DNA of 64,000 bases from Pelagimonas varians (lineage in GTDB: Bacteria; Pseudomonadota; Alphaproteobacteria; Rhodobacterales; Rhodobacteraceae). Below, piece by piece: positions 11,425 to 22,091 of this stretch (position 1 is the stretch's first letter; each line of letters begins with the position of its first letter). Where the stretch lies: assembly GCF_003208435.1 (NCBI RefSeq), contig NZ_QKMF01000018.1, forward strand, positions 1-64,000, written 5' to 3'. Made by a program: the position numbers and the translations under genes. Under the pieces are notes generated by a model. The model was given only the letters and a program-made list of their open reading frames with translations, searched no databases and was not told the origin of the DNA.

Positions 11425-12711
11425 ATGGCTTTGGATCAAGAGACCGGCATCGCCCAGTACGACGCACCCGAAAAAGACCTGTATGAAATTGGGGAAATGC
11501 CCCCGATGGGTTATGTTCCCAAGAAAATGTATGCTTGGGCCATCCGCCGTGACCGCCATGGTGAACCCCTTCAGTCTTTCCAGCAAGAAGTGGTCGACAC
11601 TTGGGTTGTAGACAGCCACGAAGTGTTGGTTCTCGTTATGGCGGCCGGTGTAAACTATAATGGTGTTTGGGCCGGTCTTGGTCAGCCAATCAGCCCGTTT
11701 GACGTGCATAAGCAGGACTTTCACATCGCTGGTTCCGACTGTTCCGGTATCGTTTGGGCTGTTGGCGACAAAGTAAAGAACTGGAAAGTTGGCGACGAAG
11801 TTGTGGTTCACTGTAACCAAGACGACGGCGACGACGAAGAGTGCAACGGCGGCGACCCCATGTTTTCGCCCACTCAGCGGATTTGGGGCTATGAAACCGG
11901 CGACGGATCGTTTTCTCAGTTCACACGGGTTCAAGCACAGCAGTTGATGCCGCGCCCCAAGCATCTGACGTGGGAAGAAAGCGCCTGCTATACGCTGACA
12001 CTGGCCACAGCCTATCGCATGCTCTTCGGTCACCACCCACACGAACTTAAGCCAGGTCAGAACGTTCTGGTTTGGGGCGCGTCGGGCGGATTGGGATCCT
12101 ATGCGATCCAGCTGGCGAACACAGCCGGCGCTAACGCAATTGGCGTCATTTCAGACGAGAGCAAGCGCGATTTTGTTCTGAGCCAAGGTGCCAAGGGTGT
12201 TATCAACCGCAAAGACTTTGATTGCTGGGGTCAGCTGCCCACGGTGAATAGCCCCGAGTATAACGCGTGGCTTAAAGAAGCCCGCAAGTTCGGCAAAGCG
12301 ATCTGGGAAATCACTGGTAAAGGTGTGAGCGTCGACATGGTGTTCGAACACCCGGGCGAGGCAACCTTCCCTGTGTCCACTTTGATCGTGAAAAAGGGTG
12401 GCATGGTTGTGATCTGCGCCGGTACATCCGGTTTCAACACGACCTTTGACGTGCGTTACATGTGGATGCACCAGAAGCGTTTGCAGGGCTCGCACTTTGC
12501 GAACCTGAAGCAGGCCGCATCTGCCAACCGTCTGATGTGCGAGCGTCGCCTTGACCCCTGCATGTCCGAAGTCTTCCCTTGGGCTGAAATTCCAGAAGCC
12601 CATATGAAGATGCTGCGCAACGAGCACAAGCCCGGCAATATGTCCGTTCTTGTACAGGCACCCACAACCGGATTGCGTACTTTGGAAGACGCACTGGAAG
12701 CCCGCAGCTAA
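11425..12711 (+). CDS. ccrA: Crotonyl-CoA carboxylase/reductase
   Basis: Committed enzyme of the ethylmalonyl-CoA pathway: it reduces crotonyl-CoA with NADPH and fixes CO2 to make (2S)-ethylmalonyl-CoA. The 428-residue protein has the long N-terminal extension, the GroES-like domain (GVNYNGVWAGLG) and the cofactor motif VLVWGASGGLGSYAIQLA that mark CCRs among medium-chain reductases. HCNQDDGDDEECNGGDP is typical of this branch. An AGGAGG site precedes the ATG. A perfect terminator follows, so it is probably monocistronic. With the mutase at 7689-9659, it indicates that acetyl-CoA assimilation runs by this route. Confidence 0.97.
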   Translation: MALDQETGIAQYDAPEKDLYEIGEMPPMGYVPKKMYAWAIRRDRHGEPLQSFQQEVVDTWVVDSHEVLVLVMAAGVNYNGVWAGLGQPISPFDVHKQDFHIAGSDCSGIVWAVGDKVKNWKVGDEVVVHCNQDDGDDEECNGGDPMFSPTQRIWGYETGDGSFSQFTRVQAQQLMPRPKHLTWEESACYTLTLATAYRMLFGHHPHELKPGQNVLVWGASGGLGSYAIQLANTAGANAIGVISDESKRDFVLSQGAKGVINRKDFDCWGQLPTVNSPEYNAWLKEARKFGKAIWEITGKGVSVDMVFEHPGEATFPVSTLIVKKGGMVVICAGTSGFNTTFDVRYMWMHQKRLQGSHFANLKQAASANRLMCERRLDPCMSEVFPWAEIPEAHMKMLRNEHKPGNMSVLVQAPTTGLRTLEDALEARS

Positions 12712-12734
12712 GCACACTTCCTTCGACAGTTCTG

Positions 12735-12773
12735 AAACGCCCGCGAATCACCCATTTGGGTCGCGGGCGTTTT
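12735..12773 (+). terminator. Terminator of ccrA
   Basis: A perfect 12-base stem (AAACGCCCGCGA at 12735-12746 with TCGCGGGCGTTT at 12761-12772), with an inner CCCA/TGGG pairing and a closing T-run. Confidence 0.92.
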
Positions 12774-12923
12774 GCTGTGCTGAGTGCGCAAATTTAAAAC
12801 AATCACTTGGCGAAACGCCCCCTCGCAGTTTCTGGGGAGTAGGATTCCGTGAATATTAACCGTGATGAGGTCATGCTAGGGTTGATTTAATGGATCATTA
12901 ACCTGCTATAAGGGAAAACGGAT

Positions 12924-13130
12924 ATGGGACAAGATTGGATACTCGACGTACTGACCGACCTGAAAACATTTGCGCGTGCCAATGGAATGCCATCCCTCGC
13001 CGCGCAACTGGATGATGCAACATTTGTTGCTCAGGCCGAGCTTGCGTCTCTCGCCGAGGAAAACGGGGTTGGGATTTTTGGACAAGGTGCCACGGCTGGA
13101 AGCTCTGATCGAACGATTGGAATCCGCTGA
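12924..13130 (+). CDS. Small protein overlapping luxR
   Basis: A 68-residue ORF beginning MGQDWILDVLTDLKTFARAN, with an AAGGGAAAA ribosome binding site. The first 45 residues look like two amphipathic helices; the tail, which overlaps luxR, is low in structure. The frame overlaps the inferred luxR start by 62 bases in another frame, and the luxR ribosome binding site lies inside it, so luxR translation may depend on translation of this ORF. I recognise no named family. It may be a leader peptide or a small partner of the regulator. Confidence 0.65.
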   Translation: MGQDWILDVLTDLKTFARANGMPSLAAQLDDATFVAQAELASLAEENGVGIFGQGATAGSSDRTIGIR

Positions 13131-13797
13131 GGGATTAGAAGACCTTCAAAATGTGATCGAAGAGCTGCGCGACAGCTTTGGTGTCGATCATATGATTTAC
13201 CATTGGGTAAATAGCAAAGGCGATCAATACGGGTGTGGTACGTACGACTTGGAATGGGTCAACCGATATGTCCAAAAGGGGTATCTAAGGGTTGATCCGG
13301 TAATTGTTGGGTGTTTTCAACGCTTCCACCCCGTTGATTGGAAACGCTTCGACTGGTCAAGCAAAGCCGCACGCGCCTTCATGCAAGACGCTATCGAGCA
13401 CGGAGTTGGCAATCAGGGCTATTCTATCCCGATACGGGGCCCCAACGGTCAATTCGCCCACTTTACGTTAAGCCACAATTGCAACGACGAGGACTGGCAA
13501 ACGTTTACAGACAAAAACCGCCGCGATCTGATCTTGATTTCGCATAGCTTTAACCAAAAAGCCTTGGAATTTCAGCCGGGCAGAACGCCAGAATCTTCTC
13601 AATCCTTGTCCCCACGTGAGATTGAGGCAATGACACTACTGGCAACCGGATTGAGCAGGGCGCAAGCTGCGGATCAACTGTCCATATCGGAGCATACGCT
13701 TCGGGTTTACGTTGAAAGCGCCCGTCATAAACTGGGCGCCTTGAATACAACACATGCAGTCGCGCGGGCCTTAAACCGCGGGCTGATTGTCATATGA
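13069..13797 (+). CDS. luxR: LuxR-family acyl-homoserine-lactone regulator
   Basis: Cytosolic quorum-sensing regulator of 242 residues. The N-terminal autoinducer-binding domain shows the typical aromatic pattern and Asp-Pro (YHWVNSKG, then GYLRVDPVI and WKRFDW), and a later GNQGYSIPI. The C-terminal helix-turn-helix is LSPREIEAMTLLATGLS followed by SISEHTLRVYVESARHKLG. I chose TTG at 13069 because GAGGA lies eight bases upstream and the resulting length is standard; the in-frame ATG at 12970 would add 33 non-conserved residues. It is followed by luxI, its probable signal synthase. Confidence 0.92.
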   Translation: MGFLDKVPRLEALIERLESAEGLEDLQNVIEELRDSFGVDHMIYHWVNSKGDQYGCGTYDLEWVNRYVQKGYLRVDPVIVGCFQRFHPVDWKRFDWSSKAARAFMQDAIEHGVGNQGYSIPIRGPNGQFAHFTLSHNCNDEDWQTFTDKNRRDLILISHSFNQKALEFQPGRTPESSQSLSPREIEAMTLLATGLSRAQAADQLSISEHTLRVYVESARHKLGALNTTHAVARALNRGLIVI

Positions 13798-13802
13798 TCT
13801 GA

Positions 13803-13834
13803 CGCGCTGGTAATTTTTCGTTTACCACGGCGCG
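13803..13834. promoter_or_regulatory. Dyad between luxR and luxI: lux-box-like or terminator
   Basis: A 20-base dyad (TGGTAA at 13808-13813 with TTACCA at 13822-13827) is extended by CGCGC/GCGCG arms with a two-base bulge. It lies just after the luxR stop and 86 bp before luxI (dyad centre). The 20-bp size matches a lux box, but the bases do not match the classic CTG-N10-CAG pattern, so it could equally end the luxR transcript. Confidence 0.4.
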
Positions 13835-13903
13835 CGGTTGGTTTGTGTCCCGTTAACCGGGAAATCCCAAAGTAGTCCCATCAAGTTCACGAGGGGCTAC
13901 ACC

Positions 13904-14569
13904 ATGATCCGTTACATTTACGCTGAAGATCTTCACAATTTCCCGAAACTGGCGCGCACCATGTTTCAAGACCGCGCCATGCAGTTCAAGACCCGCCATG
14001 ACTGGGATGTCACCGTGGATCAGGACGGTTTCGAGCGTGATGAATATGACCGAGAAAACCCCCTTTATATAATCTGGGAAAACGCTGATGGCAGCCATGG
14101 TGGCTCTTTGCGTCTGATGCCAACCGTAGGCAAGACCATGGTCAACGACCACTTTTTGAACCTGACTGACGGCGTTCGTATCGAAAGCCCTTTGATCTGG
14201 GAATGCACACGGTTTTGCCTTGCAAAAGGGGCTCGCCCCGGTGTTGCAGCGGCCTTGATGCTTGCGGGCGGCGAGGTGATGAAAGAATTCGGCGTTGACC
14301 ATTTTGTCGGAGTTATCTTCGCCCATATGGTGCGTGTGTTCCGTCGGATCGGATCGACTCCAGAGGTGTTGGGCACCGAAGGTGAGGGCCGCGAGGCAAT
14401 TAGCGTGGCGATTTGGGAGTTTACCGAAGAAACCCAAGCGGCCGTTGCCAAAGCGGCTGGTGTTACCCCAGAGCTATCCAAGCGTTGGTTTGAACTGTCT
14501 TTTGGCACTCCGGCCCGCATGGACAGCATGCCCAACCCGTTTTTGGCCTTTGCAGACCAAGCGGCCTAG
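13904..14569 (+). CDS. luxI: Acyl-homoserine-lactone synthase (LuxI family)
   Basis: Makes the N-acyl-homoserine-lactone signal from S-adenosylmethionine and an acyl carrier. The 221-residue protein has the family residues in order: ARTMFQDRA with Arg and Phe, HDWDV with Trp, GFERDEYD with the acidic pocket, GGSLRLMPT and ECTRFCLA. GAGGGG precedes the ATG at 13904; the longer frame from 13838 is not conserved. The paired luxR lies upstream in the same direction. Acyl-chain length cannot be read from the sequence. Confidence 0.96.
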   Translation: MIRYIYAEDLHNFPKLARTMFQDRAMQFKTRHDWDVTVDQDGFERDEYDRENPLYIIWENADGSHGGSLRLMPTVGKTMVNDHFLNLTDGVRIESPLIWECTRFCLAKGARPGVAAALMLAGGEVMKEFGVDHFVGVIFAHMVRVFRRIGSTPEVLGTEGEGREAISVAIWEFTEETQAAVAKAAGVTPELSKRWFELSFGTPARMDSMPNPFLAFADQAA

Positions 14570-14701
14570 TTGATCGACAGTAACGAGTGCCCCTCAAAAG
14601 GGCGTGCGGCCGGATCTCTGCACGTCGCTTTAACCACCGCTTGCGGCAATCAGGCTCGCTTTCAACTGGCACCGGGGCTTGCGTCCAGATAGGGTGCGTC
14701 C

Positions 14702-16240
14702 ATGACCGCGCCAGCTATTGTTTTCTCCGAAGATCAAGCCCTTGCTCATGACCGCGTTGCGCAGATGTTGCGCGATGCCGGAGTGGATTTGGACGACGGA
14801 ATTTGCCTTCCGGCCAGCGATGGCCCCAGTCAGGTGATGGCCCTTATGGGCAAGGCCGGCAGTGGCAAGACACTGCTTTTGGCTGAATTGGTGAAATCCT
14901 TGGAAGCAGCTGGCGTTGAAATCGTCTCTGGCGATTTTGAATCCAAGCGGCGCAAAGAAAAGCGTTCGCTTGCGGTGCTGGCTCCGACCAACAAAGCCGC
15001 CTTTGTTTTGCGAACGCGCGGCGTGCCCGCCACCACAATTCACCGTATTTTGTACACGCCGGTTTACGATCCCGAATATGAACGGGTCGCTGAATGGTTG
15101 ATGGGCAACGACGAAAAACCCGAAATCGAAGGTTTGCATATCGAAGCTTTGGATCGGGCCAAAGCCACATATGATCTCCATAAATCGATTCCGGCTGCAT
15201 TGGCTGCCGCGGGTCTAAAGGGATCGGACTTTATCACCGGATGGAAACGGCGCGAAGAACCGTTGGACATTGGGTTCGTTGACGAATCTTCGATGCTGGA
15301 TGATCGGCAGTTCGAAGACCTCAAAGAGATCTTTCCGAATCTATTATTGTTTGGGGATCCCGCGCAGCTGCCACCGGTCAATCAGTCCGGCGAAATGGTG
15401 TTTGAGAAGCTGCCCGCTGATCAAAGGATGGAATTGCACCGCATCCATCGCCAGCAGGCGGACAACCCGATTCTTGATCTGGCGCATGCTTTGGCTGATC
15501 CTCAGCTTAGTTTTGACGATTTCGAACGCATGATCGAAGAGGCATCCCGCAAAGATGATCGCGTGGTCTATGCGCAAAGGGTCGAAGTCGATTTGATGGC
15601 CCGCTCGCCCGTCTTGGTATGGCGCAATGCGACGCGAATTCGCCTAATCAATGCGTTTAGGGCTGTGCATGGCGCACCCGACACTGAACTTTTGCCCGGT
15701 GAACCCTTGATCTGCGACGGCATTGAGCTGCCGTTAAAGCATCGTAAAAAGCGTCTCGATCTTGAGGCGCGCGGTCTGATCAAAGGCGCGCAGGTTGTTT
15801 ACCTTGGGCCAGGGCGCAAACCCGGATTTTCACGTCTTCATGTGATGGGTGCGATTGAGCCGCAAGTGTCGGCGGCATCAATTGTGAAGATCGAAAAACC
15901 TGAGGAAGCAGAACCCTTTATCCCTTTTGCCGCGCGGATGGGGGCAACGTTTTTGCACGGGGCTGCGGTCACGATTCACAAGTCGCAGGGCAGTCAATGG
16001 AGCGATGTGCAGGTCTTTGCGCCTGATCTGTATGCGGCTGCGCGGATGGGGCGATCAGAGGCCGGACAGCCCCTCTGGAAACGCCTTGCCTATGTTGCAA
16101 TCACCCGCGCGTCAGAGCGTCTGTATTGGGTTGTACGCAACCGTCTATCGAAACCGACCGGCGTTTTGCGAGTAGATGATTTGGGCGGAACTCCAGCACC
16201 CTTGGCACTGGAGCCCCAAAGCGAGCTCGACGGGTTATAG
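14702..16240 (+). CDS. RecD-like ATP-dependent DNA helicase
   Basis: A 512-residue superfamily 1 helicase. Motifs in order are Walker A GKAGSGKT (about residue 51), Ia LAPTNKAA, Walker B DESSM, motif III GDPAQLPPV, motif V TIHKSQGSQW and motif VI YVAITRASERLYW. The order and TIHKSQG block place it with exonuclease V alpha/RecD2-like enzymes that unwind DNA 5' to 3'. It has no nuclease domain. No recB or recC lies nearby, so it acts alone or with distant partners. Its 3' end overlaps the convergent CurA-like gene by six bases. Confidence 0.88.
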   Translation: MTAPAIVFSEDQALAHDRVAQMLRDAGVDLDDGICLPASDGPSQVMALMGKAGSGKTLLLAELVKSLEAAGVEIVSGDFESKRRKEKRSLAVLAPTNKAAFVLRTRGVPATTIHRILYTPVYDPEYERVAEWLMGNDEKPEIEGLHIEALDRAKATYDLHKSIPAALAAAGLKGSDFITGWKRREEPLDIGFVDESSMLDDRQFEDLKEIFPNLLLFGDPAQLPPVNQSGEMVFEKLPADQRMELHRIHRQQADNPILDLAHALADPQLSFDDFERMIEEASRKDDRVVYAQRVEVDLMARSPVLVWRNATRIRLINAFRAVHGAPDTELLPGEPLICDGIELPLKHRKKRLDLEARGLIKGAQVVYLGPGRKPGFSRLHVMGAIEPQVSAASIVKIEKPEEAEPFIPFAARMGATFLHGAAVTIHKSQGSQWSDVQVFAPDLYAAARMGRSEAGQPLWKRLAYVAITRASERLYWVVRNRLSKPTGVLRVDDLGGTPAPLALEPQSELDGL

Positions 16241-17248
16241 CGCGACGATTTGCTTGCCGGTGTTGCCGCCCTTAAGCATCGAAATGAAGGCTTCGGGGGC
16301 TGCTGCCAACCCCTGTGCAACATCTTCTAAATACTTTATTTCCCCTGACAAAACTTTCGGGGCGACCTCTGCAAGGAACGCCGGGTAGTCATCCCAGTGG
16401 TCAAAGATGATAAGGCCCGACACATGTAGGCGCTTGACGAGAATAGAGCGCCACATACTCGGCAAACGGTCTTGCGATTCCTCGGCTCCGCCGTACCAGG
16501 AAATCATGCCGCACACAGGAATGCGCCCACCGACATTCATCAAAGGCATGACGGCCTCAAGCACCTTACCGGCGACGTTTTCCCAATAAATATCAACGCC
16601 ATCGGGTGCGACATCTGCCAGGGCATTGCGCAACGCACCTGCGTCTTCATAGGCGCGATGATCAAGCGCCTCGTCAAACCCGAACTGTTCTTTTGCGATA
16701 GCGCATTTTTCTGCCCCGCCGGCGATGGCGATGGTGCGCAGGCCAGCTGCCTTTGCCAACTGTCCGACCATTGCCCCAACGGGGCCAGTTGCTGCGGCAA
16801 TGACCAGTGTTTCACCTGCTTGTGGCCGGCAATATTTGCGCAATCCGGTCCATGCGGTAAAGCCCGGCATACCCAAGACCCCCAAAGCCAAAGACGGCTT
16901 GAGGTTGGTATCAAGCTTACGGGCCTCGGTTGCCTTGAGGGCTGCATGGCTGGCCCAGCCGGTCATTCCGGTCGCCAGATCTCCGACCTCGAATCCGGCT
17001 GCGTTTGAGGCAATCACCCGGCCAACCCCTTGGCCTGTCATCGTTTCCCCCAGATTAACCGATGGCGCATAGCTTTTGACGTCGTCCATGCGGCCACGCA
17101 TATAGGGATCGAGTGAGAGATGGCTGACCTCGACTACGATCTCACCTTGGCTGGGCTGCGGGATCGGTCCTGTGGTCAGCGCGAAATCCTGCGGAACCGG
17201 TGCGCCGCTTGGGCGCCGTGCCAATGTGATGCTTTGCATATCGGACAT
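16235..17248 (-). CDS. NADP-dependent oxidoreductase (CurA/PTGR-like)
   Basis: A zinc-independent medium-chain reductase of 337 residues that probably reduces the double bond of alpha,beta-unsaturated ketones or aldehydes with NADPH. Seen motifs are MTGQGVGRVIASNAAGF, AAATGPVGAMVGQLAK for NADPH binding and IYWENVAGKVLEAV, as in curcumin reductase CurA and prostaglandin reductases. No zinc-binding Cys lobe is present. It is divergent from the acyl-CoA ligase operon with about 110 bp between them, so a shared promoter region and a shared pathway for oxidised lipids are possible. Confidence 0.88.
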   Translation of the reverse strand: MSDMQSITLARRPSGAPVPQDFALTTGPIPQPSQGEIVVEVSHLSLDPYMRGRMDDVKSYAPSVNLGETMTGQGVGRVIASNAAGFEVGDLATGMTGWASHAALKATEARKLDTNLKPSLALGVLGMPGFTAWTGLRKYCRPQAGETLVIAAATGPVGAMVGQLAKAAGLRTIAIAGGAEKCAIAKEQFGFDEALDHRAYEDAGALRNALADVAPDGVDIYWENVAGKVLEAVMPLMNVGGRIPVCGMISWYGGAEESQDRLPSMWRSILVKRLHVSGLIIFDHWDDYPAFLAEVAPKVLSGEIKYLEDVAQGLAAAPEAFISMLKGGNTGKQIVAL

Positions 17249-17356
17249 AAAGTCCCCCTACGTCATTTTTGTGGTTTGCGTGGAATACAGGTTGCGCGAT
17301 GCACCCCAATTTTGCCACTCTGTCTAAAGAGATAGCAGATGGCAGGGGAGGGCTGG

Positions 17357-18994
17357 ATGCAAGGCAAGATGATGCAAATGCCGCTACGTATTATTGATAT
17401 CCTTCAATACGCGAGCGAAGTTCACCCGGATGGAGAAGTCGTTTCGGCGCGTGTCGAAGGCGATATTCATCGCGAAACCTATGTTCAGGCCTTTGAGCGC
17501 AGTGCGCAATTGGCTCATGGTCTAAAGGGGCTTGGGATCGGCGATGGTGACCGCGTTGCGACGCTGGCTTGGAACGGGTACCGTCATTTCGAACTGTATT
17601 ACGCGATATCGGGCATGGGGGCGGTGTGCCATACCATCAACCCGCGCCTGTCGGCGGAACAGATGCTCTATATCATCGGCCATGCCGAGGATCAGATCCT
17701 GTTTACCGATCTGACATTTGTGCCAATTCTAGAAGCGCTGGCAGATCAACTGCCGTCGGGCCTCAAGTTCGTAGCGATGACTGATCGGGCTCATATGCCC
17801 GAGAGCAAGCTAGACCTGTTGTGCTATGAGGAACTGTTGGACGGGCAACCTCTTCGCTATGACTGGCCTCTGATCGATGAAAATGAGGCGTCGGGTTTGT
17901 GCTACACGTCGGGCACCACCGGCCATCCCAAAGGGGCACTATATTCGCACCGCTCGACTGTTTTACATGCCTTGATGTCGGCGGTTTCAGTACCGAAATC
18001 CTTGAACGAAGGGGCGCGGATTCTTCCTGTGGTGCCGATGTTCCACGTTAATTCTTGGGGGTTGCCATACTCGGCACCGCTCACTGGGGCGTCTCTGATC
18101 ATGCCGGGGCCGCATCTGGATGGGGCTTCGCTGTTTGACCTGATGGAGAATGAGCTTGTGACCGCCAGCTGGGGTGTCCCAACTGTCTGGATGGGCCTGC
18201 GCGCGGAAATGGCAGCGCGGGATGCGGTTCCAGCTAGTTTGACACAGCTGGTCGTCGGGGGATCGGCCGCCGCGCGTGAAATGATTGAGTTTTTCGAAGG
18301 CAAAGGTATCGATGTCTGCCATGCATGGGGCATGACCGAGATGAGCCCGCTTGGCACACAAGCGCAGGTCTCCAAATCGATGCAAGATCTGCCCAAAGAT
18401 GTTCAGATCGACTACAAGAGCAAGCAGGGGCGTCGTGTATTCGGCGTCGATCTGAAGATCGTCGATGAGGAGGGCAAACGTCTTCCGCATGATGGCGAAG
18501 CCGTAGGGGAGCTGTTTGTTCGCGGCAATGCGGTTGTATCGGGCTATTTCAACAACGAAGAAGCCTCGGCCGCCGCCATGGATGCCGAAGGATGGTTTGG
18601 CACTGGCGACGTTGCCCACATCGACAAACAAGGGTTCCTAAGCCTGCAGGATCGGTCCAAGGATCTGATCAAATCCGGCGGCGAATGGATCAGTTCTATC
18701 GATCTGGAAAATATCGCGTTGGGGCACCCCAAGGTCTCCAATTGCGCTGTGATCGCCATTGCGCATCCGAAATGGGAAGAACGCCCTTTGTTGGTGGTTG
18801 TTCCGGCTGATCCTGCAGATCCGCCTGTGCTGTCAGAATTGCATGACATGATGTTGGAGCATGTGGCGCGTTGGCAATTGCCAGATGACATGGTTTTTGC
18901 AGAGGCTTTGCCACTGACGGCAACAGGCAAAGTGTCCAAGCTGACCTTGCGCAAAACCTATGGCGACCATGTGTTGCCTGATGCCGCCGGATGA
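17357..18994 (+). CDS. Acyl-CoA synthetase (AMP-forming)
   Basis: Activates a medium- or long-chain carboxylate to its CoA thioester via an acyl-adenylate. The 545-residue ANL enzyme shows the AMP motif LCYTSGTTGHPKGALYSH, then WGMTEMSP, FGTGDVAH (a GTGD-type A7 motif) and a C-terminal lysine block TGKVSKLTLRK. The N-terminal MQGKMMQMPL style and LAWNGYRHFELYY resemble the group containing DmdB, so a methylmercaptopropionate ligase is an alternative. I chose ATG 17357 for its GGGGAGG site; another ATG is at 17339. It is first in a five-gene operon and overlaps the next gene by four bases. Confidence 0.88.
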   Translation: MQGKMMQMPLRIIDILQYASEVHPDGEVVSARVEGDIHRETYVQAFERSAQLAHGLKGLGIGDGDRVATLAWNGYRHFELYYAISGMGAVCHTINPRLSAEQMLYIIGHAEDQILFTDLTFVPILEALADQLPSGLKFVAMTDRAHMPESKLDLLCYEELLDGQPLRYDWPLIDENEASGLCYTSGTTGHPKGALYSHRSTVLHALMSAVSVPKSLNEGARILPVVPMFHVNSWGLPYSAPLTGASLIMPGPHLDGASLFDLMENELVTASWGVPTVWMGLRAEMAARDAVPASLTQLVVGGSAAAREMIEFFEGKGIDVCHAWGMTEMSPLGTQAQVSKSMQDLPKDVQIDYKSKQGRRVFGVDLKIVDEEGKRLPHDGEAVGELFVRGNAVVSGYFNNEEASAAAMDAEGWFGTGDVAHIDKQGFLSLQDRSKDLIKSGGEWISSIDLENIALGHPKVSNCAVIAIAHPKWEERPLLVVVPADPADPPVLSELHDMMLEHVARWQLPDDMVFAEALPLTATGKVSKLTLRKTYGDHVLPDAAG

Positions 18995-19434
18995 TCGTTG
19001 ACGATCTGCGGGCCTTGCCCGAACAACTGTCGGACTGGGTGTTGTTGGATGCGGCAAAGGTCAAAGCCTTTGCCGATTCAACCGAAGATTGGCAGTTCAT
19101 TCACCTGGATGACGCGCGCGCTGCGGCTGAAACGCCGTTTGGCGGCGCAATTGCCCATGGGTTTTTGACGCTCTCCCTGCTGTCGATGATGTCCTATCAG
19201 ATTATGCCAAAGTTCCCCGGCCTGCGGGCCAGTATTAACTACGGCTTTGATCGCATTCGCTTTGTGTCGCCGGTACGGGTTGGTGCGCGGGTACGTGGAC
19301 GTTTTGCCGTGGCTTCCGTTGACGAAGGTGATGGCTGGCTTGGCGTTCACTGGGACGTCACCATTGAAATAGAAGACAGCGCTCGCCCGGCTTTGGCGGC
19401 GCAGTGGATTACCCGTCTGGAATTGGAGACATAA
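18991..19434 (+). CDS. MaoC-like enoyl-CoA hydratase
   Basis: A 147-residue single hotdog protein that should add water to enoyl-CoA to give (R)-3-hydroxyacyl-CoA. The hydratase-2 signature is clear: DWQFIHLDDARA supplies the catalytic Asp/His pair, followed by FGGAIAHGFLTLSLL. It starts in an ATGA overlap with the ligase stop and ends one base before the dehydrogenase gene, so it is tightly co-translated. In the proposed pathway it would act on the enoyl-CoA produced by the neighbouring dehydrogenase. Confidence 0.9.
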   Translation: MIVDDLRALPEQLSDWVLLDAAKVKAFADSTEDWQFIHLDDARAAAETPFGGAIAHGFLTLSLLSMMSYQIMPKFPGLRASINYGFDRIRFVSPVRVGARVRGRFAVASVDEGDGWLGVHWDVTIEIEDSARPALAAQWITRLELET

Positions 19435-19435
19435 G

Positions 19436-20671
19436 ATGGATCTTGGTGTAACAGATCGGGTGCGCCCATTGATCGAGGCCGTACGCCGCATGGTTGAAGA
19501 TGACATTGCGCCGCTGGATGCGGAATTTCACGCCGAAGTGGGCAAACACCCATCGGGCGACCGGTTCCAGCACACAGCGCGCCAGCTCGAAATCTTGGAT
19601 GGTCTCAAGGCTTTGGCCCGCGAACGCGGTCTGTGGAACTTTTGGCTGACCGGCAGTGATCGCGGTTATGGCTTGTCGACAGTTGAATACGCATATTTGG
19701 CCGAAGAAATGGGCAAGGTCGGTATCGCGGCAGAGGTGTTCAACTGTAATGCCCCCGACACCGGGAATATGGAAGTGCTGGAACGCTACGGCGAAGACTG
19801 GATGAAAGAGCGCTGGCTAACTGATTTGCTGAATGGTGAAATCCGTTCAGCCTATGTGATGACCGAACCGGATGTGGCGTCTTCTGATGCTGCGCAATTG
19901 GTGTTCGAAGCCAAACGCGACGGCGACGACTATGTTTTGAACGGCGAAAAGTGGTGGATCAGTGGGGCAGGCGATCCGCGTTGCAAAGTCTATATCCTAA
20001 TGGCCTGTACGGACCCGGGGGCTGCCAAACACAGCCGTCACACGATGTTTGTCATGGATGCCGACACGCCGGGGATCGACATCTTGCGCCCGATGCAAGT
20101 CTTTGGACAGGACGATGCCCCGCACGGCCATATGCATCTGCGGTTCACCAATGTCCGGATACCCGCCCGAAATGTGGTGCTGGGTGAGGCACGCGGATTT
20201 GAAGTGGCGCAAGGCCGACTTGGCCCTGGCCGCATTCACCACTGCATGCGCGCCATCGGGCAGGCGGAAAAAGCGCTGGATATGATGTGCAAACGGGGCC
20301 TCGAACGCGAAGCCTTTGGCAAGCAGATCATCGATTTGGGGGCGAATTACGACATTATCGCCAATGCGCGGATGGATATCGAAATGGCTCGGCTCTTATG
20401 CCTCAAGGCGGCATGGATGATGGACACCGCCGGAGTGCGCGCAGCGCAGCCGTGGATTTCCAAGATTAAGGTGATCGCGCCTTTGATGGCCGGACGGGTC
20501 ATTGACGAAGCCATGCAGCTCCACGGCGCGGCAGGCATTTCGCAAGACACCTCACTTGCCTCGATGTGGACGCATGTCCGCACCCTGCGCTTTGCCGATG
20601 GCCCTGATGCAGTGCATCGCCGCCAAGTCGCCCGCGCCGAGTTGCGCAAGCATTCAAACAAAGCAGGCTGA
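19436..20671 (+). CDS. Acyl-CoA dehydrogenase, ACAD10/11-like
   Basis: A 411-residue FAD enzyme of the acyl-CoA dehydrogenase superfamily. Recognisable blocks are YVMTEPDVASSDA for flavin/substrate binding, GEKWWISGAGDP, GPGRIHHCMRAIGQAE and the C-terminal HGAAGISQDTSLASMW. In the position where classical enzymes have the catalytic base in YEGT, this one reads LRFADGPDAVH, as I recall for the ACAD10/ACAD11 branch. That branch works with a kinase domain to remove a 4-phosphate group from acyl-CoA. The kinase-like gene follows three bases later. Confidence 0.9.
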   Translation: MDLGVTDRVRPLIEAVRRMVEDDIAPLDAEFHAEVGKHPSGDRFQHTARQLEILDGLKALARERGLWNFWLTGSDRGYGLSTVEYAYLAEEMGKVGIAAEVFNCNAPDTGNMEVLERYGEDWMKERWLTDLLNGEIRSAYVMTEPDVASSDAAQLVFEAKRDGDDYVLNGEKWWISGAGDPRCKVYILMACTDPGAAKHSRHTMFVMDADTPGIDILRPMQVFGQDDAPHGHMHLRFTNVRIPARNVVLGEARGFEVAQGRLGPGRIHHCMRAIGQAEKALDMMCKRGLEREAFGKQIIDLGANYDIIANARMDIEMARLLCLKAAWMMDTAGVRAAQPWISKIKVIAPLMAGRVIDEAMQLHGAAGISQDTSLASMWTHVRTLRFADGPDAVHRRQVARAELRKHSNKAG

Positions 20672-20674
20672 GCC

Positions 20675-21697
20675 ATGACCCCAGTTGAGCTGGACCATGT
20701 TTGCGCTTGGATGAACGCGCATGTGGCCGGGTTTACGGGCCCGATAACCGCAACCAAATTCGACGTCGGCCAATCGAACCCGACGTACCGGTTGGATAGC
20801 CCGTCGGGCTGCTATGTTTTACGGCGCAAACCACCGGGCGTTTTGCTGAAATCGGCTCATGCTGTTGACCGGGAGTTTAAAGTTCAAAAAGCGCTGGCCG
20901 GGTGCGAAGTGCCGGTGCCAAAAATGCTGGGCCTATGCGAAGATGAAACGGTACTAGGCACCCAGTTTTATGTGATGGAGCACATCGAAGGCCGCAATCT
21001 GGTTGATCCTTCAATGCCAGATGCGACGCCGACCGAGCGCGCGGCCGTTATCAAGGAAATGAGCCGAGTATTGGCTGCCATCCATTCGGTGGATTTGGTC
21101 GCTGCTGGTTTGACAGAATACGGCCCGCCCGGTCACTATTTTGAACGCCAGTTGGCCCGTTGGTCAAAGCAGTATCGTGCCTCGGAGACTGAAAATATTC
21201 CGGCGATGGAACAGTTGATCACATGGCTTACTGACAATATGCCCGCGGATGATGGCCAACGTACTTTGGTTCATGGTGACTACCGGATCGACAACATGCT
21301 ATTCGCAACCGATCGCCCAAAATGCCTTGCGGTTTTGGATTGGGAATTGTCGACCCTCGGCCACCCCTATGCAGATTTGGCGGGTGTCATCATGCAGTGG
21401 CAGCTTCCTCCGGGCGGTGAAGGTCGCGGGCTGGCCGGAGTAGACCGCGAACAAACGGGCCTTCCTAGCGATGGCGCATTCATAGCCGACTATTGTCAGC
21501 GCCGCGGCGTTCCCGAAATCGAGAATTTTGGCTTCTATCTTGCCTTCGCTTTTTTCCGCATGGCCGCCATCTTGCAAGGCGTCAAAAAGCGCGCTCTTGA
21601 CGGCAATGCTGCCAACCCGGAAAAGGGTCTAAAACTGGGGGCATTTGTCCCCCATTTTGCTGAATTGGGAATAGGGGCTACGGATTGGCATGGATGA
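20675..21697 (+). CDS. APH-fold kinase, ACAD10/11 N-domain-like
   Basis: A 340-residue phosphotransferase of the aminoglycoside phosphotransferase/choline kinase fold. It has a glycine-rich GQSNPTYRL loop (about residue 30), a VLRRKPPG Lys strand, the catalytic LVHGDYRIDNMLF and the metal-binding AVLDWELSTLGHPYADLAG. The last two blocks are what I know from the kinase half of ACAD10 and ACAD11 and from levulinate-pathway LvaA. The likely substrate is a 4-hydroxyacyl-CoA; antibiotic resistance is unlikely given the operon. It is flanked by the dehydrogenase and a thioesterase gene. Confidence 0.9.
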   Translation: MTPVELDHVCAWMNAHVAGFTGPITATKFDVGQSNPTYRLDSPSGCYVLRRKPPGVLLKSAHAVDREFKVQKALAGCEVPVPKMLGLCEDETVLGTQFYVMEHIEGRNLVDPSMPDATPTERAAVIKEMSRVLAAIHSVDLVAAGLTEYGPPGHYFERQLARWSKQYRASETENIPAMEQLITWLTDNMPADDGQRTLVHGDYRIDNMLFATDRPKCLAVLDWELSTLGHPYADLAGVIMQWQLPPGGEGRGLAGVDREQTGLPSDGAFIADYCQRRGVPEIENFGFYLAFAFFRMAAILQGVKKRALDGNAANPEKGLKLGAFVPHFAELGIGATDWHG

Positions 21698-22091
21698 ACG
21701 TCTTCGAGAAAAATCATATGCTTATGCCAGACATCTCGGGTTTGAGATGGTAGATTGGCGCGACGGATACTCGAAATTCCAATTGCCGCTTGAACCGCAT
21801 ATCATGAACCGTCACGGCAGCCCGCATGGCGGCTCTCATGCCTCATTGCTGGACACAGTCATGGGGTTTGCAGGGTGTTTCACGGGGGACCCTGACAACC
21901 GCCAAATGTGTTGGACGCTCAGCCTGAATGTCCAATACCTCTCACGCCCACGGGGCGAAATGTTTATCGCTGAAGGCTTCAAAACCGGCGGCGGCAAATC
22001 CACTTTCTTTGCCGAAGGTACGATCAAAGATGAAACCGGTAAAGTGATAGCCAAAGGCACAGGGACCTTTCGCTACCGTAAATCCGGCTAG
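21690..22091 (+). CDS. PaaI-type hotdog thioesterase
   Basis: A 133-residue acyl-CoA thioesterase with the hotdog signature NRHGSPHGGSHASLLDTVMGFA, in which the acidic residue of the long helix (Asp) and the HGG turn form the active site. It overlaps the kinase gene by eight bases and is the last gene of the operon. It probably hydrolyses stalled or excess CoA esters to free CoA; specificity cannot be read from the sequence. A tandem-hairpin repeat follows. Confidence 0.88.
   Translation: MDERLREKSYAYARHLGFEMVDWRDGYSKFQLPLEPHIMNRHGSPHGGSHASLLDTVMGFAGCFTGDPDNRQMCWTLSLNVQYLSRPRGEMFIAEGFKTGGGKSTFFAEGTIKDETGKVIAKGTGTFRYRKSG

What the first reader, a model, noticed from the sequence alone, without database searches (positions are those of the whole stretch)
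16235..22091. Candidate 4-hydroxyacyl-CoA catabolic cluster with kinase and dehydrogenase as separate genes
Seen: acyl-CoA ligase, MaoC hydratase, acyl-CoA dehydrogenase, APH-fold kinase and hotdog thioesterase overlap or sit within a few bases of one another, and a CurA/PTGR-like enone reductase is divergent. Known: in ACAD10/ACAD11 and in the levulinate (lva) pathway, a kinase of this fold phosphorylates 4-hydroxyacyl-CoA and a dehydrogenase of this branch removes the phosphate to give an enoyl-CoA. Inferred: this operon activates a 4-hydroxy acid, phosphorylates and isomerises it, and feeds the product to beta-oxidation. The PTGR-like reductase suggests that oxidised lipids or 4-hydroxyalkenal products are the source.
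Basis: partly seen in the sequence, partly recalled or inferred. Interest (0 to 1): 0.75.

Follow-up and report, generated by a model that had tools for sequence, protein, structure and literature searches.

The report
Bacterial 4-hydroxy-acid breakdown gene cluster
A marine bacterium carries, as separate neighbouring genes, close relatives of the two halves of the mammalian enzymes ACAD10/11 that make 4-hydroxy fatty acids digestible, with a set of partner genes that travels with them in many related ocean bacteria.

Summary
In detail: six intact ORFs, five packed head to tail and one divergent. The core interpretation is well supported by sequence. P0005 is an ACAD10/11-type kinase (142 of 326 aligned residues identical to mouse ACAD11), P0004 an ACAD11/LvaC-type dehydrogenase (186 of 386). 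P0004 has the three residues that bind the 4-phosphate in ACAD11 and its special catalytic Asp; the five nearest own paralogs lack the trio. Of 149 sampled family genomes, 86 have the kinase and 82 of these the dehydrogenase; none of the other 63 has it at the thresholds used. The ligase occurs only with the kinase (34 of 34), the CurA-like type nearly so (48 of 50). Of the 80 best relatives 27 keep the order; others hold the genes in two loci. Separate kinase and dehydrogenase genes are already known (lva; a Burkholderia pair). It is not a strict levulinate operon: no LvaB or LvaD in the cluster. New is the conserved partner set (ligase, MaoC, thioesterase, CurA). The substrate, including oxidised lipids, is unproven. 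Nothing was assayed.

The parts
16235..17248 (-). CurA/PTGR-like NADPH enone reductase (P0001), divergent
   Evidence: NCBIfam CurA model 402 bits, below its cutoff of 440; PDB 5zxu E 2e-96, leukotriene B4 12-HD 1v3t 3e-59; the >=53% identity type is in 50 of 149 genomes, 48 of them with the kinase
17339..18994 (+). acyl-CoA ligase (P0002)
   Evidence: PDB 6ihk 550 bits, Thermus long-chain FACS 1ult 508 bits; 34 of 34 carrier genomes also have the kinase
18991..19434 (+). MaoC-type enoyl-CoA hydratase (P0003), Rv0130-like
   Evidence: PDB 2c2i E 1e-29; the D..H pair of the motif is aligned (that these are the catalytic residues is recalled)
19436..20671 (+). ACAD11/LvaC-type acyl-CoA dehydrogenase (P0004), proposed 4-phosphoacyl-CoA eliminase
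   Evidence: ACAD11 E 1e-116; H232 R261 R266 H269 R272 D388 match H597 R626 R631 H634 R637 D753
20675..21697 (+). ACAD10/11-type kinase (P0005), proposed 4-hydroxyacyl-CoA kinase
   Evidence: PDB 3dxp E 3e-107, ACAD11 E 1e-83; R158 D202 N207 match R176 D220 N225; only match in the genome at E<=0.001
21690..22091 (+). hotdog (PaaI/4HBT) thioesterase (P0006)
   Evidence: TIGR00369 59.8 bits, cutoff 36.6; HGG..D motif aligned with PA5202 1zki

Best explanation
The cluster activates a 4-hydroxy carboxylic acid to its CoA thioester (ligase), phosphorylates the 4-OH with ATP (kinase), and lets the ACAD11-type flavoenzyme remove the phosphate to give a 2-enoyl-CoA. The MaoC enzyme probably hydrates this to a 3-hydroxyacyl-CoA for beta-oxidation. 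The thioesterase probably frees CoA from stalled thioesters. The CurA-like reductase probably saturates an enone or enal precursor upstream. Shown by sequence: families, diagnostic residues, conservation, co-occurrence. Inferred: every reaction in this organism, the roles of MaoC, thioesterase and CurA, and the substrate, most likely medium-chain 4-hydroxy acids (gamma-lactones, oxidised lipids).
For: Match to the mouse ACAD11 kinase and dehydrogenase halves. All six checked ACAD11 dehydrogenase positions conserved (residues from the paper section read), and in 116 of 116 collected relatives at >=60% identity (one search shows 117 rows, one being the window itself), against 0 of 5 own paralogs for the R/H/R trio. 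Kinase residues conserved in 173 of 173 collected relatives. Co-occurrence in 149 family genomes: 82 of 82 dehydrogenase carriers have the kinase, 34 of 34 ligase carriers, 48 of 50 carriers of the CurA type; of 23 genomes with only a lower-identity CurA paralog, 11. Of 26 relatives without a kinase beside the dehydrogenase, 21 have one elsewhere, there often with thioesterase and CurA (15 and 9 of 21). A Burkholderia kinase and dehydrogenase each replaced the matching ACAD10 part in vitro (PMC11342911, passages).
Against: No assay. 5 of 26 genomes with the dehydrogenase gave no kinase; all five are single-cell or metagenome assemblies of unknown completeness. 4 of 86 kinase genomes gave no dehydrogenase at the threshold. 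52 of 86 kinase genomes gave no ligase of this type at E<=1e-170 and 38 of 86 no CurA of this type, so neither is obligatory in the family. Co-occurrence is not corrected for shared ancestry; the CurA identity cut was set after seeing the table, though cuts from 50 to 60% leave only 1 or 2 kinase-less carriers. The paper's kinase residue R86 could not be matched by number. The ligase scores similarly with long-chain FACS and 6ihk, so chain length is open. The closest named relative, Pelagimonas phthalicica, shows no CurA at this place.
Confidence: 0.83

Rival explanations
1. It is a levulinate (lva) operon: ligase, reductase, kinase and eliminase for levulinate or 4-hydroxyvalerate specifically.
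For: Same kinase and dehydrogenase families; the P. citronellolis lva cluster also has no lvaB and has a histidine phosphatase by its kinase (PMC6692424, passages), a pairing found directly upstream in 27 of 58 kinase loci of this family.
Against: No SDR (LvaD) among the six genes and no room for an LvaB-sized gene between the five plus-strand genes. The partner set differs (MaoC, thioesterase, CurA). LvaB, LvaD and LvaR homologs elsewhere in the genome were not searched for.
Confidence: 0.07
2. It is an ordinary fatty-acid beta-oxidation operon; the dehydrogenase oxidises acyl-CoAs and the kinase acts on something else.
For: Ligase, dehydrogenase, hydratase and thioesterase fit ordinary beta-oxidation.
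Against: Phosphate-binding R/H/R present here and absent from the five nearest own paralogs; the kinase co-occurs with this dehydrogenase type. ACAD10/11 showed no activity on plain C6-C22 acyl-CoAs (PMC12440821, passage).
Confidence: 0.05
3. It serves DMSP demethylation: the ligase is DmdB, the dehydrogenase DmdC.
For: Best NCBIfam ligase model is 3-methylthiopropionyl-CoA ligase, 751.5 bits against a cutoff of 822; 6ihk, recalled to be a DmdB, is the best solved match; roseobacters are known DMSP users (recalled).
Against: Model score below its cutoff; the dehydrogenase is ACAD11-type (none of its 46 listed PDB sequences is named DmdC, but many bear generic names, so that is weak); a kinase has no place in that pathway (recalled).
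Confidence: 0.03
4. It is an accessory of the ethylmalonyl-CoA pathway, since ccr ends 4.6 kb before the ligase.
For: ccr lies upstream of the ligase-dehydrogenase pair in many of the 80 relatives.
Against: P0004 (411 aa) resembles ACAD11 (393 bits) far more than 6es9 (551 aa, recalled to be a methylsuccinyl-CoA dehydrogenase; 105.8 bits); MaoC is 147 aa, too short for the double-domain mesaconyl-CoA hydratase (recalled).
Confidence: 0.02

Closest known systems
Mammalian ACAD10/ACAD11
   Same: Kinase fold and dehydrogenase branch; dehydrogenase H597 R626 R631 H634 R637 D753 and kinase R176 D220 N225 conserved
   Different: Two genes instead of one fused protein; cluster with ligase, MaoC and thioesterase; 44% (kinase) and 48% (dehydrogenase) identical to mouse ACAD11 over aligned residues
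P. putida lva operon (LvaA, LvaC, with LvaB, LvaD, LvaE)
   Same: Separate kinase and dehydrogenase genes with an acyl-CoA ligase
   Different: No LvaB or LvaD in the cluster; MaoC, hotdog thioesterase and CurA-like gene instead. LvaA and LvaC sequences were not obtained, so identities were not measured
Burkholderia LvaA/LvaC orthologs that replace ACAD10 parts in vitro (PMC11342911, passages)
   Same: Separate ACAD10-like proteins without fusion
   Different: Sequences not fetched and gene context not compared
P. citronellolis lva cluster (PMC6692424, passages)
   Same: Kinase and LvaC homolog; histidine phosphatase by the kinase, as in many relatives of the window
   Different: The window cluster has no histidine phosphatase; the only match in the genome to a relative's phosphatase is 32% identical, on another contig

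Membership tests
ACAD10/11-LvaC type dehydrogenase | Catalytic Asp (D753) | tested here: met
   P0004 D388
ACAD10/11-LvaC type dehydrogenase | 4-phosphate-binding R626, H634, R637 | tested here: met
   P0004 R261, H269, R272; trio absent from the 5 own paralogs found at E<=1e-20
ACAD10/11-LvaC type dehydrogenase | Nearer to ACAD11 than to conventional solved dehydrogenases | tested here: met
   393 bits against 152 for the best medium-chain enzyme; only 4hr3, of untested function, scores higher (429)
ACAD10/11-type kinase | Catalytic D220, its partner N225 and CoA-contact R176 | tested here: met
   P0005 D202, N207, R158
ACAD10/11-type kinase | CoA-contact R86 beside the alpha-C Glu | tested here: inconclusive
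   By my numbering the position is Phe in both proteins; an Arg-Glu pair (R66 E67) is present and conserved in 173 of 173 relatives
ACAD10/11-type kinase | ATP-dependent phosphorylation of 4-hydroxyacyl-CoA | not testable with these tools
   needs an assay
lva (levulinate) operon | LvaB small partner of the kinase in the operon | tested here: not met
   No room for such a gene between the plus-strand cluster ORFs; rest of the genome not searched
lva (levulinate) operon | LvaD-type SDR in the operon | tested here: not met
   No SDR among the six genes
lva (levulinate) operon | LvaA/LvaC sequence orthology | not tested
   LvaA/LvaC sequences not obtained
DMSP demethylation (DmdB/DmdC) | Ligase passes the curated methylthiopropionyl-CoA ligase cutoff | tested here: not met
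   751.5 against 822 bits

The most novel reading that the evidence does not exclude
The six-gene set is a bacterial counterpart of the mammalian disposal route for lipid-peroxidation enals and oxylipins: the CurA-like enzyme saturates a 4-hydroxy- or 4-oxo-2-alkenal or enone, the acid is activated by the ligase, and the ACAD11-type pair moves the 4-hydroxy group into beta-oxidation. Marine roseobacters would use it to consume or detoxify oxidised algal or own lipids.
Probability: 0.27. Interest if true: 0.62.

Novelty: new variant of a known kind. Interest (0 to 1): 0.43.

Why it matters
The chemistry was assigned in mammals only in 2024-2025 and in bacteria is described mainly for levulinate, as far as the papers seen show. 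A compact set with its own ligase, hydratase, thioesterase and enone reductase, whose four-gene core keeps its order in 12 named Rhodobacterales genera and is split over two loci in others, gives testable partner enzymes and suggests that many marine bacteria consume 4-hydroxy acids. The co-occurring CurA-like gene makes a link to oxidised-lipid turnover directly testable.

Tried and rejected
Rejected: ethylmalonyl-CoA, DMSP and plain beta-oxidation readings (see rivals). A first, greedy ORF caller picked antisense ORFs in GC-rich genomes and was followed by tblastn and a codon-based caller. The codon caller missed the window's own thioesterase, so the gene counts reported rest on tblastn. The first negative control translated three own paralogs on the wrong strand and was redone. 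My first CurA count (47 of 49, lower paralog 12 of 24) left out one genome at 53% identity; one search corrects it to 48 of 50 and 11 of 23. The promoter and terminator scan was uninformative. No structure prediction was run, because solved relatives are close. Literature: no listed paper described this pathway in roseobacters by title or abstract start; only searches used a Phaeobacter or roseobacter term, and searches listed 20 of 881, 10 of 84 and 10 of 41 papers. One search (CurA and 4-hydroxynonenal; 10 of 982 listed) gave nothing useful by listing.

Limits: kinase E<=1e-40, dehydrogenase <=1e-60, ligase <=1e-170, CurA >=53% identity (chosen after seeing the table). The genome search scores only the best candidates per genome (up to 12 for the dehydrogenase, 9 for the ligase, 14 for CurA). 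G002, one of four kinase genomes without a dehydrogenase, has a 33% identical one beside the kinase, below the threshold. Unnamed family genomes and these relatives overlap, so searches count some species twice.
Full report
What is there. The window lies on contig 18 of a 4.93 Mb genome and holds the six ORFs as described. The nearest relative by the dehydrogenase is Pelagimonas phthalicica, 94% identical (records very near the window may be left out there). Pfam and NCBIfam assign MDR/CurA reductase, AMP-binding ligase, MaoC, acyl-CoA dehydrogenase, APH kinase and 4HBT/PaaI-type thioesterase.

Kinase and dehydrogenase. Among solved structures P0005 matches 3dxp best (E 3e-107), then mouse ACAD11 (1e-83). 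P0004 matches 4hr3 (2e-127) and ACAD11 (1e-116); the best medium-chain dehydrogenase scores 152 bits against 393 for ACAD11. By the ACAD11 paper (PMC12440821; section 7 read whole, outline and abstract, other passages), R626, H634 and R637 bind the 4-phosphate, R631 is common to the family, D753 is the catalytic Asp, and loss of H597 only partly reduces activity. All six are in P0004, at R261, H269, R272, R266, D388 and H232. Kinase R176, D220 and N225 are R158, D202 and N207 of P0005. The paper's R86 does not fall on an Arg by my numbering; an Arg-Glu pair is present nearby. The five own paralogs found with P0004 at E<=1e-20 lack the R/H/R trio. In the collected relatives the six-residue dehydrogenase signature is complete in 116 of 116 at >=60% identity (the call's 117 rows include the window), 7 of 10 at 42-60% (the other 3 differ only at H597) and 15 of 18 below 42%; the five checked kinase residues are identical in 173 of 173 (some species counted twice).

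Co-occurrence. In 149 genomes drawn from the family (the window's own included), 86 have the kinase at E<=1e-40 and 82 the dehydrogenase at <=1e-60; all 82 are kinase genomes. The four kinase genomes without it are G002, G004, G083 and G102; G002 has a weaker one beside its kinase. The ligase at <=1e-170 is in 34 genomes, all with the kinase, while 52 kinase genomes lack it. The CurA type at >=53% identity is in 50, of which 48 have the kinase, while 38 kinase genomes lack it; 23 genomes have only a lower-identity CurA paralog, 11 with and 12 without the kinase, which serves as an internal control. These counts are not corrected for shared ancestry.

Arrangement. Of the 80 best relatives by dehydrogenase identity, 27 have ligase, dehydrogenase, kinase and thioesterase together, all 27 in the same order and strand; 16 of the 27 have all six genes, and in 19 a CurA-type gene stands divergent before the ligase. 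By content, 13 have dehydrogenase and kinase only, 24 ligase and dehydrogenase only, and the remaining 16 other combinations (some contigs are cut short). Named genera with the four-gene set are Pelagimonas, Antarctobacter, Primorskyibacter, Pseudoprimorskyibacter, Thalassococcus, Sagittula, Thetidibacter, Mameliella, Roseivivax, Puniceibacterium, Marinovum and Maliponia. On a quick kinase tree of 128 rows (no bootstrap) most operon kinases form a group of 31 rows, 29 of them labelled operon, out of 32 such rows in all (SH-aLRT 96). Of the 26 relatives without a kinase beside the dehydrogenase, 21 have one elsewhere (in L180, L196 and L221 the contig ends within 300 bases after the dehydrogenase, but their kinases lie beside other genes). 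In these 21 kinase loci, held with at most about 1.5 kb of flank, a thioesterase is found in 15, a histidine phosphatase in 14, MaoC in 13 and the CurA type in 9. So much of the same set exists merged (window type) or split. In Cognatishimia sp. F0-27 (L174) the operon runs from dehydrogenase to thioesterase with no kinase recognisable between, and a kinase outside the operon group lies on another contig. The five genomes with no kinase found (G155, G160, G167, G169, G173) are single-cell or metagenome assemblies.

Larger neighbourhood in relatives. In the kinase-selected sample (58 loci at >=56% identity) a histidine phosphatase gene is directly upstream in 27, the ACAD11-type dehydrogenase in 19, and the thioesterase directly downstream in 17 (within 250 bp, same strand). 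Many of these kinases sit in a long beta-oxidation cluster with a pair of acyl-CoA dehydrogenases (best models PimC/PimD, far below cutoff), SDRs, thiolase, a nitronate monooxygenase-like protein, an IclR regulator and a Liv-type ABC transporter, one of them on a Sulfitobacter pontiacus plasmid. A phosphatase by the kinase was noted before in P. citronellolis lva (PMC6692424, passages).

How it probably works. Ligase: 4-hydroxy acid to CoA ester. Kinase: 4-phosphorylation; ACAD10/11 did not phosphorylate the free acid. Dehydrogenase: phosphate elimination with redox-active FAD and no net oxidation. MaoC: hydration. Thioesterase: rescue of CoA. CurA type: saturation of an enone or enal precursor. 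Kinase and dehydrogenase rest on close relatives and residues, the ligase on family and co-occurrence; the rest is inference from family and linkage.

Against known systems. It works like ACAD10/11 and lva. The two enzymes meet each ACAD10/11 sequence feature that I could test, except one residue number that could not be matched. The cluster is not an lva operon in the strict sense: no LvaB and no LvaD in it. 'Separate genes' is not new. New, as far as the listed searches show (listings partly capped), is the conserved Rhodobacterales partner set and its merged and split forms. Levulinate-operon details come from passages of PMC6692424 and the two ACAD papers (PMC11342911 in passages); the original paper was not held.

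Verdict. A real, conserved cluster; the core chemical interpretation is about 0.83 likely; the substrate is open.

Noticed in passing
window 11425-16240: ccr, a LuxR-type regulator, a LuxI-type synthase and a RecD2-like helicase ORF (names recalled from the translations) stand upstream; this order is shared with many relatives, also where only ligase and dehydrogenase follow.
   Followed up: partly
window 16235-16240: The helicase-like ORF and the CurA-like gene converge and overlap by 6 bases.
   Followed up: no
L061 and similar loci (e.g. L046, L049, L050, L053-L060, L062, L066, L068, L073, L074, L079; unnamed family genomes) and L274 (Sulfitobacter pontiacus plasmid): Kinases 63-67% identical to P0005 sit in a long beta-oxidation cluster with histidine phosphatase, two acyl-CoA dehydrogenases, thiolase, SDRs, IclR regulator and Liv-type transporter, not every part in each locus; the substrate is unknown.
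   Followed up: partly
L174 (Cognatishimia sp. F0-27), about 9.2-9.5 kb: The operon has CurA, ligase, MaoC, dehydrogenase and thioesterase but no recognisable kinase; a kinase outside the operon group of the tree lies elsewhere in the genome.
   Followed up: yes
L268 (Rhodobacteraceae bacterium HIMB11): The kinase matches as two overlapping pieces in different frames, either a frameshift or a sequencing error.
   Followed up: no
PDB 3dxp: A protein of 359 residues, of which 26-350 align to the kinase P0005, is deposited as putative acyl-CoA dehydrogenase, perhaps a label carried over from the fused ACAD10/11.
   Followed up: no
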